Assembly (NCBI GenBank): GCA_017621475.1
Contig: JAGATA010000041.1
Location: 1-64,000 of the forward strand
DNA: 64,000 bases
Reading direction: 5' to 3'
DNA from: Clostridia bacterium
GTDB taxonomy: Bacteria; Bacillota; Clostridia; Oscillospirales; CAG-272
Shown here: piece after piece, positions 55,159-58,690 of the stretch
Layout of the letters: every line of letters starts with the position of its first letter
How positions within the stretch are numbered: position 1 is the first letter of the stretch
The notes under the pieces: model-generated
Told to the model about the DNA's origin: nothing
Databases searched by the model: none
What the model saw: the letters and a program-made list of their open reading frames with translations, nothing else
Program-made: the position numbers and the translations under genes

Positions 55159-56982
55159 ATGTGCGGAATAATCGGTTATACGGGAAAAAGCCCATGCAAA
55201 AATATACTCCTTTCGGGGTTATATGCTCTGGAGTACAGGGGCTATGACTCCGCAGGAATGGCGCTTCTCGATAACAAAGGTTTTACAATTATAAAAAGCC
55301 GTGGGGAGGTTTCGCGCCTTGAAGAAAAAATGAGGGCGTTCCACGCCCCGGAAAGCTCCTGCGGAATCGCTCACACGCGCTGGGCAACGCACGGAGAGCC
55401 CGGCGAGCGCAACGCGCACCCTCATGTCGTCGGCAAAACCGCGCTCGTTCACAACGGCATAATAGAAAACTTCAAGGAAATACACGAACTTCTCCTATCG
55501 AAAGGATACGTTTTTGCTTCGGAAACGGACACGGAAGCGGCGGCGGCTCTTATCGATCTTTACTACAGCGAAACGGGCGAGCCGCTTTCAGCCCTCTCCC
55601 TCGCATGCGAAAAACTTTGCGGCTCATTTGCTTTTGCCGTGATGTTTGAGGATAGAGAAGGTGAACTTTACGGTGTGCGCGTGGGCAGTCCCTTGCTTAT
55701 CGGCGCGGGAGATGGAGAAAGCCTTCTTGCTTCCGACACAGCCGCCTTTCCCGCCAACATAGATCGATATATAGCTATGGAAGACGGAGGGATCTCTCGC
55801 ATCTTTCGTGACGGCTTTCAGCTTTTCGATATGAGCCTTTCCGAAATCAAGGCAAACGAGCAACCGCTTACGCAAATTTCTCGCAACACGCACAAGGACG
55901 GCTACGAGCATTTTATGCGCAAGGAGATACACGAGGAAGCCGCCGCCGTGCTAAAAACGCTTGCCGCGTATATCAAAAACGGCTTGCCCGATTTTAGCGC
56001 AAGCGGCGTGGATACATCCATATTAAAACGGCTTTCCTCCCTGCATATCGCCGCATGCGGCACGGCTATGCACGCAGGACTCTTTGCAAAATTCTTGATA
56101 GAAAAATTTTTGCGCATACCTGTTTTTGCAGAGGTCGCATCCGAATTTCGATATAAAGAACCTATATTTGAGGAAAATACCGCGCTCCTCGTCATTTCTC
56201 AATCGGGCGAAACGGCAGATACACTTGCCGCCCTACGCCTTGCAAAAGAGAGGGGGATATACAGCATCGCCGTTGTAAACGTACCCTCCTCCTCCATTGC
56301 AAGAGAGGCAGACGCGGTAATATACACCCACGCAGGGCGCGAGGTCTCCGTTGCAAGCACGAAGGCTTACACGGTGCAAACGGCGCTTTTATCGCTCTTT
56401 GCGCTACACCTTGGGCTTTTGCGCGGAAACATCTGCGAAAGTGAGGCGCAAAAGTTCTGCTTTTCGCTTTCCCGCGAGCTTCCGGAAAAGATTGACGAAG
56501 TCATCGCACGCGAAGACGAGGTACGCGCCCTGTGCCTTTCTCTTTCACAAAAAGAAAGTGCGTTTTTCATCGGCAGAGGGGTGGATGCACACATCTGCGC
56601 AGAGGGCGCGCTCAAGCTAAAAGAAGTATCGTATATAAACGCGCAAGCGTACCCCGCAGGGGAGCTAAAGCACGGCACTATCTCTCTTATCTGCAAGGGT
56701 TTGCCCGTTATAGCGGTGTCGACACAGCTCTCCACCGCGGAAAAGACCGCCGCGAACATTCGCGAGGTTGCCGCGCGCGGAGCCGACGTTTACCTTGTCG
56801 CGCCTGCGGATTTTCCACAGGACGGTGCAAAATATATTTTTTCGCTTCCAAAAGCGACAGAGCCGCTTCTGCCCATACTCGCCGCAACGGTGACACAGCT
56901 GCTTGCGTACCACGCCGCCCTTTTGCGCGGCTGCAACGTGGATAAACCGAGGAACCTCGCCAAATCCGTAACGGTGGAGTAA
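55159..56982 (+). CDS. glmS: Glutamine--fructose-6-phosphate aminotransferase (isomerizing)
   Basis: 607 residues. The N-terminal Cys nucleophile (CGIIGYTG) and the class II glutaminase loop (YALEYRGYDSAGMALL) are followed by ARTRWATHG-type IAHTRWATHGEPGERNAHP. The two SIS domains carry HIAACGTAMHAGLFAKF and VISQSGETADTLAALRLA, and the C-terminus is NVDKPRNLAKSVTVE, as in all GlmS. It makes glucosamine 6-phosphate for cell-wall precursors. There are only 4 nt between the spoIVA stop and this start and no strong ribosome site, so it is coupled to spoIVA, and there is no room for a glmS ribozyme. Confidence 0.97.
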   Translation: MCGIIGYTGKSPCKNILLSGLYALEYRGYDSAGMALLDNKGFTIIKSRGEVSRLEEKMRAFHAPESSCGIAHTRWATHGEPGERNAHPHVVGKTALVHNGIIENFKEIHELLLSKGYVFASETDTEAAAALIDLYYSETGEPLSALSLACEKLCGSFAFAVMFEDREGELYGVRVGSPLLIGAGDGESLLASDTAAFPANIDRYIAMEDGGISRIFRDGFQLFDMSLSEIKANEQPLTQISRNTHKDGYEHFMRKEIHEEAAAVLKTLAAYIKNGLPDFSASGVDTSILKRLSSLHIAACGTAMHAGLFAKFLIEKFLRIPVFAEVASEFRYKEPIFEENTALLVISQSGETADTLAALRLAKERGIYSIAVVNVPSSSIAREADAVIYTHAGREVSVASTKAYTVQTALLSLFALHLGLLRGNICESEAQKFCFSLSRELPEKIDEVIAREDEVRALCLSLSQKESAFFIGRGVDAHICAEGALKLKEVSYINAQAYPAGELKHGTISLICKGLPVIAVSTQLSTAEKTAANIREVAARGADVYLVAPADFPQDGAKYIFSLPKATEPLLPILAATVTQLLAYHAALLRGCNVDKPRNLAKSVTVE

Positions 56983-57001
56983 AGAGTAAAACCAAAAAAA
57001 G

Positions 57002-57040
57002 AGTAGGAACAAAGTTTTTTCTTTTGTTCCTACTTTTTTT
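57002..57040 (+). terminator. Intrinsic terminator of spoIVA-glmS
   Basis: AGTAGGAACAAA and TTTGTTCCTACT pair over 12 bp, followed by TTTTTTT. Confidence 0.85.
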
Positions 57041-57046
57041 AATATT

Positions 57047-57607
57047 TTACCAAGATTTCAATTCCTCATAACACGCATTAGATGCTTTATAATAAATAGT
57101 TATTTTTGTATCGTTGTAACCCAGAAATTTTGAACACGAAAAAGATATATCTTCAGAGCCGCTTACATCTTTAGGGAAACGCGCTCTAAGCATAGCTATA
57201 GATTTATTCGCTATCACACTTCCCAAAGCAGTCCTTTCGGCACTTCTTTCCAATCTAGGATACCTATGTTCATCAAAATCATAATACCACATTCTAAAAT
57301 CGCATTCAACAAATTTATAGTTGCAAAAACAGCTAGATACTTCACTCGGCGATACAGAAAAAGAACACGAAAATTCAAGTTTTTCTTCCGTTTTATATCT
57401 AGGATATTCTGCAATAATATCCCCAAATGTTTGTGCAATTTTCGCGCTTGCATAATTGGCGGCTTCCGAATTTTGAAACCTTTCCATTTCATCCTTTGCC
57501 ATTATTTCATCAAGTTTATGAGGTATAGCTTCCTGACAATACATAATAAAACAAAAAATAATTATACCAATAACACCAAAAGCCAAAATTCCAAAAATAA
57601 ATTCCAT
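57047..57607 (-). CDS. Hypothetical single-pass membrane protein
   Basis: 186 residues. An N-terminal helix (FIFGILAFGVIGIIIFCFI) anchors a soluble domain of about 155 residues containing five Cys and many aromatic residues (KFVECDFRMWYYDFDEHRYP, SFSCSKFLGYNDTKITIYY). It has no lipobox. GAGGTTG precedes the ATG at 57607, and 35 nt separate it from the gene upstream, so the two are probably co-transcribed. The family is not recognised; the fold looks beta-rich. Confidence 0.6.
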   Translation of the reverse strand: MEFIFGILAFGVIGIIIFCFIMYCQEAIPHKLDEIMAKDEMERFQNSEAANYASAKIAQTFGDIIAEYPRYKTEEKLEFSCSFSVSPSEVSSCFCNYKFVECDFRMWYYDFDEHRYPRLERSAERTALGSVIANKSIAMLRARFPKDVSGSEDISFSCSKFLGYNDTKITIYYKASNACYEELKSW

Positions 57608-57642
57608 TTTTCAACCTCAAAAATGTCCATAATTTTTATTGC

Positions 57643-57996
57643 TTATTCGTTTGTCCACATTTTAGATAGTTCTTTAATAATTTCTTCTTCGCTTACAGTT
57701 TTTTCATCCGAATCTTCTTCGTCAGAATCATCATCTTCGTCATTGCTGTCGCACAAGCTGTTTTTAATACAAAAAAGATAATCCACTATTGCCGCCATAC
57801 CAAGAAAAAAACATCCTAATATAATTGCAGTAAATGCATATTTTGCAAATATATCAAAATGAAATTCCGTTACCTTTTCACCCCACGACATACGAGTTTC
57901 CGTTGCAGCAACAATGCTATGTATCAAGCCCAAAACATATATTGCTATTGATGTTCCGAACAATTCTTTTGTTATAAAGTTATCCTTATTTTTCAT
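57643..57996 (-). CDS. Hypothetical two-helix membrane protein with acidic tail
   Basis: 117 residues. Helices at about 15-33 (IAIYVLGLIHSIVAATETR) and 50-68 (YAFTAIILGCFFLGMAAIVD) are followed by an acidic stretch (CDSNDEDDDSDEEDSDEKTV) and EEEIIKELSKMW. AAAGAGGGGGA precedes the ATG. It lies between the hairpin at 58035-58063 and the 57607 gene. Its promoter may be read-through from the 24-residue-peptide gene. Function is unknown. Confidence 0.6.
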   Translation of the reverse strand: MKNKDNFITKELFGTSIAIYVLGLIHSIVAATETRMSWGEKVTEFHFDIFAKYAFTAIILGCFFLGMAAIVDYLFCIKNSLCDSNDEDDDSDEEDSDEKTVSEEEIIKELSKMWTNE

Positions 57997-58034
57997 TTTT
58001 ATTTCCCCCTCTTTAACATTTCAGAATAATATAT

Positions 58035-58063
58035 TAAAAGCGATTACAGAAAGTAACCGCCTT
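58035..58063 (-). terminator. Imperfect hairpin after the 24-residue peptide gene
   Basis: On the minus strand AAAGGCGGTTAC pairs with GTAATCGCTTT through one bulge and a G-T pair, followed by TTTTAATATATT. Its strength is intermediate, which would allow some transcription to enter the membrane-protein genes. Confidence 0.5.
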
Positions 58064-58085
58064 TAATATTCAGAAAATCAGAACA

Positions 58086-58160
58086 TTAGCAACCAAGAAG
58101 AATTCTTCCAAATGTTCCGAGTGCGTACATAAATACGCCGAAATACAATCCACCGATCAT
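58086..58160 (-). CDS. 24-residue hydrophobic peptide with strong ribosome site
   Basis: AAGGAGGATG lies before the ATG at 58160. The peptide starts MIGGLYFGVFMYALG and ends FGRILLGC; it is one membrane-spanning helix without charge except one Arg. A consensus promoter (TTGACT-N17-TATAAT at 58213-58241) precedes it by about 50 nt, so expression is very likely. It is divergent from an XRE regulator, with three palindromes between the two. Size and hydrophobicity fit small membrane peptides such as type I toxins or small sensor/regulator peptides, but I cannot name a family. A chance frame is unlikely given the promoter and ribosome site. Confidence 0.55.
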   Translation of the reverse strand: MIGGLYFGVFMYALGTFGRILLGC

Positions 58161-58195
58161 TTTTTCATCCTCCTTTTTTCAAAACTAGTTAAAAA

Positions 58196-58272
58196 TTAAC
58201 TTTTGTAAGTTAATTATATTCTTTTTAAAACTAAAAGTCAATACTTTTAGTTAAAATTGTTATAATTTTAAC
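58196..58272. promoter_or_regulatory. Three palindromes between the 24-residue peptide and the XRE gene
   Basis: TTAACTT/AAGTTAA (58196-58213), AACTAAAAG/CTTTTAGTT (58229-58252) and GTTAAAATT/AATTTTAAC (58250-58272) overlap the promoters of both divergent genes. Repeated TTTTAGTTAAAA-like words suggest a regulator that binds cooperatively. Confidence 0.6.
58213..58241 (-). promoter_or_regulatory. Sigma-A promoter of the 24-residue peptide gene
   Basis: TTGACT (58241-58236) and TATAAT (58218-58213) on the minus strand are 17 nt apart. Confidence 0.75.
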
Positions 58273-58288
58273 TAAGGAGGGGATTTTT

Positions 58289-58564
58289 ATGAATATAGGA
58301 GAAAAAATCAGAAACAAACGGGAAGATATGGATCTATCCCAAGCCGATATGGCAAAATTGATTCCTATGAATCAATCCAACTACTCCAAGATAGAACGAA
58401 ACGTCCAAGAGCCGAATTTGGAGCAGCTGAGAAGAATTTGCCAGATTCTCAAATTAGACCCTCGTTATCTTTTGGACCTCGGTGAATTTGAATCCATCTC
58501 CCAAAGCGATATACAGCTTATCCACGATATAAAGGAATTTATTAAAAAACATAATTTTGACTGA
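58289..58564 (+). CDS. XRE-family transcriptional regulator
   Basis: 91 residues. The HTH_3 domain covers 5-60: IRNKREDMDLSQADMAKLIP, then MNQSNYSKIERNVQEPNLEQ, then RRICQILKLDPRYLLDL. The tail is a short helix (SDIQLIHDIKEFIKKHNFD). TAAGGAGGGG is 8 nt before the ATG. It faces the hydrophobic-peptide gene across three palindromes and probably represses both. Monocistronic with a strong terminator at 58571. Confidence 0.85.
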   Translation: MNIGEKIRNKREDMDLSQADMAKLIPMNQSNYSKIERNVQEPNLEQLRRICQILKLDPRYLLDLGEFESISQSDIQLIHDIKEFIKKHNFD

Positions 58565-58570
58565 AAATGC

Positions 58571-58602
58571 AAAAAGAAGCCTTGCGCAAGGCTTCTTTTT
58601 TT
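58571..58602 (+). terminator. Intrinsic terminator of the XRE gene
   Basis: AAAAAGAAGCCTTG and CAAGGCTTCTTTTT pair over 14 bp and continue into T. Confidence 0.9.
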
Positions 58603-58611
58603 ATGTTTTTT

Positions 58612-58672
58612 GAGCCTTCCCCTTGTGGGGAAGGTGTCAGCGTAAGCTGACGGATGAGGTGAGTGCGGTTTT
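58612..58672. repeat. Repeat family R1, well-preserved copy
   Basis: AGCCTTCCCCTTGTGGGGAA, then GGTGTCAGCGTAAGCTGACG and GATGAGGTG: two nested inverted repeats in the order typical of the family. It lies between the XRE terminator and argF. Confidence 0.65.
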
Positions 58673-58690
58673 TCGCACTTTTTACATTCC

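What the first reader, a model, noticed from the sequence alone, without database searches (positions are those of the whole stretch)
57047..58564. XRE regulator with three palindromes and a divergent 24-residue hydrophobic peptide
The peptide has a consensus promoter and a very strong ribosome site, which is rare for chance frames. Three palindromes overlap both promoters. The leaky hairpin downstream could allow expression of two unknown membrane proteins. The layout resembles controlled toxins, small sensor peptides or membrane-stress modules.
Basis: partly seen in the sequence, partly recalled or inferred. Interest (0 to 1): 0.65.

Follow-up and report, generated by a model that had tools for sequence, protein, structure and literature searches.

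The report
Portable repressor switch with swappable genes
The small DNA-binding protein keeps one matching DNA site and one very strong outward promoter across many gut Clostridia, but the genes it sits in front of differ in almost every genome; the tiny hydrophobic peptide in this window is just one of those exchangeable genes.

Summary
The layout is real: a 91-aa XRE gene, palindromes between two divergent promoters, a 24-codon hydrophobic frame with an 11-of-12 consensus promoter and 7-base ribosome site, a hairpin, then two membrane-protein genes. The reading as a conserved toxin or sensor-peptide module fails: the peptide has no homologue among 196 family genomes, and a relative with an identical XRE at the same glmS-argF site has other genes there. 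The stronger finding is the switch itself. In 71 of 82 rows an operator AGTTA-N5-TAACT (or AGTAA-N5-TTACT) lies just past a near-perfect sigma-70 promoter pointing away from the XRE gene (34 of 71 perfect). Conservation ends at the operator. The 67 first divergent genes form 50 families, mostly lipoproteins, surface or small membrane proteins. The exact operator occurs once in each of 10 genomes, in 8 at the XRE's own promoter. A second XRE family repeats the plan with another operator and overlapping cargo types. Best reading: a self-contained repressor/operator/strong-promoter cassette serving as a regulated slot for exchangeable envelope genes. Repression is inferred; inducing signal and peptide role are unknown.

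The parts
58289..58564 (+). XRE repressor gene, 91 aa
   Evidence: HTH_3 44.6 bits; orthologues at 80 named loci; AlphaFold model mean pLDDT 88.7, recognition helix 29-36
58274..58280 (+). AAGGAGG ribosome site of the XRE gene
   Evidence: sequence
58261..58266 (+). TATAAT of the XRE promoter, preceded by TG (extended -10)
   Evidence: sequence; -10 of at least 5/6 in 70 of 71 rows
58247..58275 (.). proximal operator: inverted repeat TTAGTTAAAATT/AATTTTAACTAA over the XRE promoter
   Evidence: half-site at this place in 65 of 71 rows
58213..58241 (-). divergent sigma-70 promoter TTGACT-17-TATAAT
   Evidence: 11 of 12; mean 11.2 of 12 in 71 rows against 7.8 shuffled
58194..58215 (.). inverted repeat AATTAACTT/AAGTTAATT overlapping the distal operator
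   Evidence: lacking in L063, so not part of the conserved core
58187..58201 (.). distal operator AGTTA-N5-TAACT
   Evidence: its only exact copy in this genome
58169..58175 (-). AAGGAGG ribosome site of the peptide
   Evidence: sequence
58086..58160 (-). 24-aa hydrophobic peptide, first cargo gene
   Evidence: no homologue in the family
58031..58069 (-). hairpin with weak T tail after the peptide (leaky terminator/attenuator)
57643..57996 (-). 117-aa membrane protein with acidic tail, second cargo gene
   Evidence: homologues beside other XRE types at G000:C17, G001:C27, G003:C82
57047..57607 (-). 186-aa protein with one N-terminal anchor, third cargo gene
   Evidence: no relative in the fetched loci
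56996..57040 (.). terminator-like hairpin between glmS and the cargo block
58571..58600 (+). terminator-like hairpin after the XRE gene

Best explanation
A self-contained regulatory cassette: an XRE repressor, its private operator, and a near-perfect sigma-70 promoter pointing outward. The XRE dimer is inferred to sit on AGTTA-N5-TAACT, placed 8-11 nt after the -10 box, and so to block the strong cargo promoter; a half-site over its own extended -10 promoter would give weaker autoregulation. When the repressor is lost or inactivated the cargo would be expressed strongly. Repressor, operator and promoter are kept while the cargo behind them is exchanged between genomes; most cargo is envelope-directed (lipoproteins, surface proteins, small membrane proteins). 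In this window the cargo is the 24-aa peptide and then, through a leaky hairpin, the 117-aa and 186-aa membrane proteins. Shown by sequence: conserved switch, sharp edge at the operator, single operator per genome, different cargo at one and the same site. Inferred: binding, repression, derepression, signal, function of the peptide.
For: Operator in 71 of 82 rows. Divergent promoter mean 11.2 of 12 against 7.8 shuffled, 34 of 71 perfect; spacer 17 in 69 of 71, operator 8-11 nt past the -10 in 68 of 71. Information falls from 1.55 bits per column in the operator to 0.34 and then 0.05 beyond it. Window against L063: XRE gene 4 of 276 bases differ, 78 of 87 identical between operator and XRE, 24 of 100 beyond it, with glmS and argF flanks shared. 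67 first cargo genes in 50 families. Exact operator once per genome in 10 of 10, at the own promoter in 8. N31/S31 follows AGTTA/AGTAA. A second XRE family with another operator shows the same plan.
Against: No binding or expression data. The N31/S31 covariation is one event on the tree. Partner diversity is partly plain loss of gene order between distant MAGs; only window/L063 (both flanks) and L076/L094 (one flank) show different cargo at a shared site, while four close pairs keep flanks and cargo. Five of 67 N31 rows lack the operator. 22 of 67 first cargo genes show no membrane or secretion signal by my simple test, and first frames were called by rule, so some short ones may be wrong.
Confidence: 0.68

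Rival explanations
1. An ordinary local autoregulator: the XRE represses itself and its divergent neighbour, and the diverse partners only reflect general loss of gene order among distant genomes, with no exchange slot.
For: The genes after the XRE are also diverse (67 clusters, mostly singletons); at 95% or more XRE identity 3 of 4 pairs keep the cargo family.
Against: The outward promoter and operator stay near-perfect although the target is not kept; window/L063 differ in cargo at a site with both flanks shared; G31 members of the same XRE family, without the operator, keep their neighbours in 5 of 6; a second XRE family shares cargo types.
Confidence: 0.22
2. Toxin-antitoxin-like: the peptide is a membrane-acting toxin that the XRE keeps silent.
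For: Small hydrophobic peptide under a strong, apparently repressed promoter with its own hairpin; L066 has a lone 26-aa hydrophobic peptide in the same slot.
Against: Private to this genome; L063 has an identical XRE without it; window and L066 peptides not significantly similar; no TA model at its cut-off.
Confidence: 0.1
3. Peptide signalling or anti-repressor: the peptide acts back on the XRE as SHP on Rgg, SinI on SinR or AimX on the phi106 repressor.
For: Best PDB sequence hits include SinR and 9sf2, the latter titled as phi106 repressor with AimX.
Against: The XRE is 91 aa with no peptide-binding domain and is identical in L063, which lacks the peptide.
Confidence: 0.05
4. Remnant of a phage or integrative-element immunity region.
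For: Fold and sequence nearest to P22 c2, SinR and ICEBs1 ImmR; TP901-1 CI has a similar half-site, AGTTCACG (passage, PMC7250872).
Against: No match in 50,697 phage or 72,556 plasmid records at E 1e-8; 0 of 29 pattern hits in viral contigs confirmed; window flanks are glmS and arg genes; RstR model 42.8 bits against a cut-off of 80.
Confidence: 0.08

Closest known systems
Phage CI-type switches (P22 c2; TP901-1 CI/MOR)
   Same: HTH fold, divergent promoters with palindromic operators; similar half-site in TP901-1 (passages, PMC7250872)
   Different: Not found in phage or plasmid records; no second repressor seen; target differs from genome to genome
Borrelia erp loci
   Same: Conserved promoter and operator before variable surface lipoproteins (passages, PMC10016077)
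   Different: There the proteins share leader sequences and lie on cp32 prophages, and the repressor is not the divergent neighbour (passages and recalled); here the repressor travels with the operator and cargo is unrelated
Horizontal regulatory transfer / mobile promoters
   Same: Regulatory DNA and genes exchanged independently (abstract and passages, PMC9944727)
   Different: There intergenic regions; here a full switch with its own repressor, and at the window site it is the cargo that changed
C proteins of restriction-modification systems
   Same: Small XRE autoregulators; fold hits C.AhdI, C.BclI, C.Esp1396I; PADLOC control-protein model E 1.8e-7
   Different: Only 1 of 66 scanned cargo proteins matches a DNA methyltransferase model (N6_Mtase)
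Xre_2225 of Clostridium thermocellum
   Same: XRE said to regulate only its own operon through inverted repeats (passages, PMC8457756)
   Different: There a type II toxin-antitoxin operon; no exchanged divergent cargo described in the passages seen

Membership tests
XRE / HTH_3 regulators | HTH_3 domain above the gathering score | tested here: met
   44.6 bits against 23; fold matches P22 c2 at TM 0.64-0.88
Rgg/SHP signalling | C-terminal peptide-binding repeat domain in the regulator (recalled) | tested here: not met
   91 aa; last helix 72-87
Rgg/SHP signalling | Short hydrophobic peptide gene kept next to the regulator | tested here: not met
   Present in the window, absent beside the identical XRE of L063; no homologue in the family
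Type II toxin-antitoxin | Antitoxin and toxin genes in one operon | tested here: not met
   Genes are divergent
Type II toxin-antitoxin | Member of a curated antitoxin model | tested here: not met
   HipB, PezA, Y4mF models far under their cut-offs
SinR/SlrR | Above the SlrR equivalog cut-off | tested here: not met
   19.1 bits against 250
SinR/SlrR | Binding by a SinI-type antagonist | not testable with these tools
   no antagonist candidate kept with the gene
RstR-type phage repressors | Above the RstR cut-off, in phage records | tested here: not met
   42.8 bits against 80; no phage record
C proteins of R-M systems | Linked to restriction-modification genes | tested here: not met
   N6_Mtase in 1 of 66 cargo proteins
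Horizontal regulatory transfer | Regulatory DNA and the regulated gene have different histories at one site | tested here: met
   Window against L063, both flanks shared

The most novel reading that the evidence does not exclude
Gut Clostridia carry several families of complete plug-in switches (repressor, private operator, near-perfect repressed promoter). Each is a fixed expression slot whose occupant is drawn from a shared pool of envelope genes, much as an integron is a slot for cassettes, but with tight repression instead of an integrase. The slot would let surface and membrane proteins be renewed by recombination at the operator without losing control.
Probability: 0.4. Interest if true: 0.78.

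Novelty: new variant of a known kind. Interest (0 to 1): 0.6.

Why it matters
A local repressor is usually recognised by its conserved target. Here repressor, operator and an almost perfect promoter are conserved while the target is not, in at least two XRE families. If it holds, such switches mark many otherwise unannotatable small membrane and surface genes as conditionally and strongly expressed, offer repressor/operator pairs with a readable N31/S31 code, and make it testable how bacteria exchange surface genes without losing their regulation.

Tried and rejected
Peptide homology: 196 family genomes at E up to 1; the ten hits besides the window (E 0.07 to 0.72) lie mostly inside longer frames. 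Window peptide against the L066 peptide: shuffle p 0.31, so I claim no peptide family although I first thought I saw a shared motif.

Regulon: other operators in the genome. Rejected: the exact operator occurs only at the XRE's own site; one further site with one mismatch at C17:43192 was not followed.

Phage or plasmid origin: no matches. Defence system: the XRE matches generic HTH models only and the two membrane proteins none.

The first, loose clustering of cargo gave 36 clusters with a 20-member lipoprotein cluster, an artefact of signal peptides and low complexity; replaced by the strict one.

Rows dropped or doubtful: L144 was lost because my pattern did not find its XRE start. L143 looks like the same record as L071, and L136/L137 are identical at XRE and cargo; all are counted in 82/71/67. 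L143 was left out of the 66 proteins. Loci that match records were not counted twice. In one search I examined 30 of the 36 matches; 3 of its 25 first frames (L182, L183, L185) come from loci without the two palindromes. L104, L112, L115, L131 and L142 are N31 rows without a recognisable operator.

Not in print: searched for XRE switches with exchanged targets or divergent peptides and none of their listings showed this; one search searched mobile promoters and regulatory transfer, TP901-1. Only open-licence papers are held.

Full report
What is there. Between glmS (55159-56982) and argF/argD (gene names from recall of the translations) lie an XRE gene (58289-58564) and a divergent block: a 24-aa frame, a hairpin, a 117-aa and a 186-aa frame.

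The peptide. Its promoter (11 of 12), its 7-base ribosome site and its start 41 nt from the operator fit the place of the first gene in relatives (55 of 67 start 29-70 nt from the operator), so the frame is very probably translated. But it is private to this genome: no homologue at E below 0.07 in 195 other family genomes. The nearest relative of the switch, L063, has a 91-of-91 identical XRE at the same site and, in place of the peptide and the two membrane genes, a 96-aa Cys-containing protein and an 83-aa membrane protein. The XRE therefore does not depend on the peptide.

The switch. A scan of named genomes gave 80 loci (90 of 103 pattern hits encode a relative; the best 80 kept). With the window and L143 I examined 82 rows. 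In 71 an operator of the form AGTTA-N5-TAACT, or AGTAA-N5-TTACT, lies 75-125 nt before the XRE start. Beside it is a divergent sigma-70 promoter that is almost perfect: mean 11.2 of 12 against 7.8 in dinucleotide shuffles, 34 of 71 exactly TTGACA/TATAAT, spacer 17 in 69 of 71, and the operator begins 8-11 nt after the -10 box in 68 of 71. A half-site lies over the XRE's own promoter in 65 of 71. Conservation stops at the operator: 1.55 bits per column inside it, 0.34 in the next 20 nt, then 0.26, 0.11, 0.09 and 0.05 (62 N31 rows). In ten genomes the exact operator occurs exactly once each, in eight at the XRE's own promoter; in G004 and G363 the single exact copy is elsewhere and the own site has one mismatch. 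The reversed control pattern occurs 31 times in all. I do not read this as avoidance, since TAA and TTA are constrained in coding frames, but it argues for a one-target repressor.

Recognition. The XRE profile aligns with P22 c2 and SinR, and the model (mean pLDDT 88.7) puts residue 31 in the recognition helix 29-36; the best fold match is P22 c2 on DNA. N31 proteins have AGTT-type half-sites in 62 of 67 rows (5 without operator); the 9 S31 proteins never have AGTTA (8 have A at that base, 1 has G); the 6 G31 proteins have no such operator (its two rows marked '?', L084 and L085, are N31). This couples protein and operator, but the tree needs only one N-S change, so it is one event, not nine.

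The cargo. Of the 71 rows 67 have a first divergent frame with a ribosome site. By strict comparison they form 50 families, the largest with 7 and 4 members; among pairs at 70-80% XRE identity 8 of 420 share a family, at 80-95% 2 of 12, at 95% or more 3 of 4 (the exception is window/L063). By simple hydropathy 16 have lipoprotein signals, 11 an N-terminal signal or anchor, 16 are membrane-like (two of them, L093 and L101, look like the two AMP-binding enzymes, so probably are not), 2 are short hydrophobic peptides and 22 show nothing, among them the window peptide just under the cut. Pfam finds BspA-type leucine repeats in 7 of 66, zinc ribbons in 6, collagen repeats in 3, TM2 in 2 and single cases such as an N6 DNA methylase and an M23 peptidase.

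Generality. The 117-aa cargo has homologues beside a second XRE family in the same genome (C17) and in G001 (C27), and beside a third XRE type in G003. That second family (34 of 196 family genomes) repeats the plan: in 25 of 30 loci two palindromes ACTCA-N5-TGAGT lie exactly 25 bp apart between XRE and divergent gene, 25 first frames fall in 22 clusters, and some of its cargo is homologous to cargo of the first family. A third XRE of this genome (L017) has inverted repeats of its own and a divergent 263-aa frame with hydrophobic stretches.

Control and limits. Five of the six G31 members of the same XRE family, which lack the operator, keep the same downstream genes, so stable neighbourhoods do occur at such divergence. 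L076 and L094, which have the switch, share one of those downstream genes yet carry different cargo. Four close pairs (L071/L143, probably one record, L084/L085, L095/L096, L136/L137) keep flanks and cargo. Most loci are distant MAGs, and part of the partner diversity must be plain loss of gene order. Binding and repression are inferred throughout.

Relation to known things. It works like a phage CI switch or a C-protein autoregulator but was found in no phage or plasmid record. Conserved promoter and operator before variable lipoproteins are known from Borrelia erp loci (passages, PMC10016077), and independent transfer of regulatory DNA is known (abstract and passages, PMC9944727). In Clostridium thermocellum Xre_2225 is said to regulate only its own operon through inverted repeats (passages, PMC8457756). 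A complete switch with its own repressor, kept while its sole target is exchanged, was not in my listings. Hence: new variant of a known kind.

Noticed in passing
L002 / L011 (G000:C17), XRE at L011:1498-1716: A second XRE family (34 of 196 family genomes) with two palindromes ACTCA-N5-TGAGT exactly 25 bp apart in 25 of 30 loci and again varied divergent cargo; in this genome it heads a run of small membrane-protein genes including a homologue of the window's 117-aa protein.
   Followed up: partly
L017 (G000:C45), about 1300-1500: A third XRE gene of the same genome with inverted repeats (TAGACGAAATTCGTCTA) and a divergent 263-aa frame with hydrophobic stretches: same layout, other operator.
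   Followed up: no
L092:502-660, L120:3672-3866, L129:3763-3876 (all -), and a second frame in L088: Short charged peptides of the type MKK-x-Y..P...-x-DVI-x-S in the cargo slot; they look like a recurring small-peptide family of gut Firmicutes (impression, not tested).
   Followed up: no
L110, L113, L118, L123, L126: G31 members of the same XRE family (MSQSGYS) lack the operator and keep two conserved downstream genes: a stable subfamily with another role.
   Followed up: partly
L080:2088-3878 (-): The cargo is an N6 DNA methylase (E 1.4e-29) directly behind the switch, which makes the XRE there resemble a restriction-modification control protein.
   Followed up: no
window 58601-58690: About 80 bp between the XRE terminator and argF that L063 lacks, with a hairpin-rich stretch (CCTTGTGGGGAAGGTGTCAGCG); looks like a small mobile repeat, but occurs only once in the window.
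   Followed up: partly
L071:3514-3735 (-): 74-aa cargo protein made of near-repeats of about 15 residues (Y-x-D-x-SG-x-WR).
   Followed up: no
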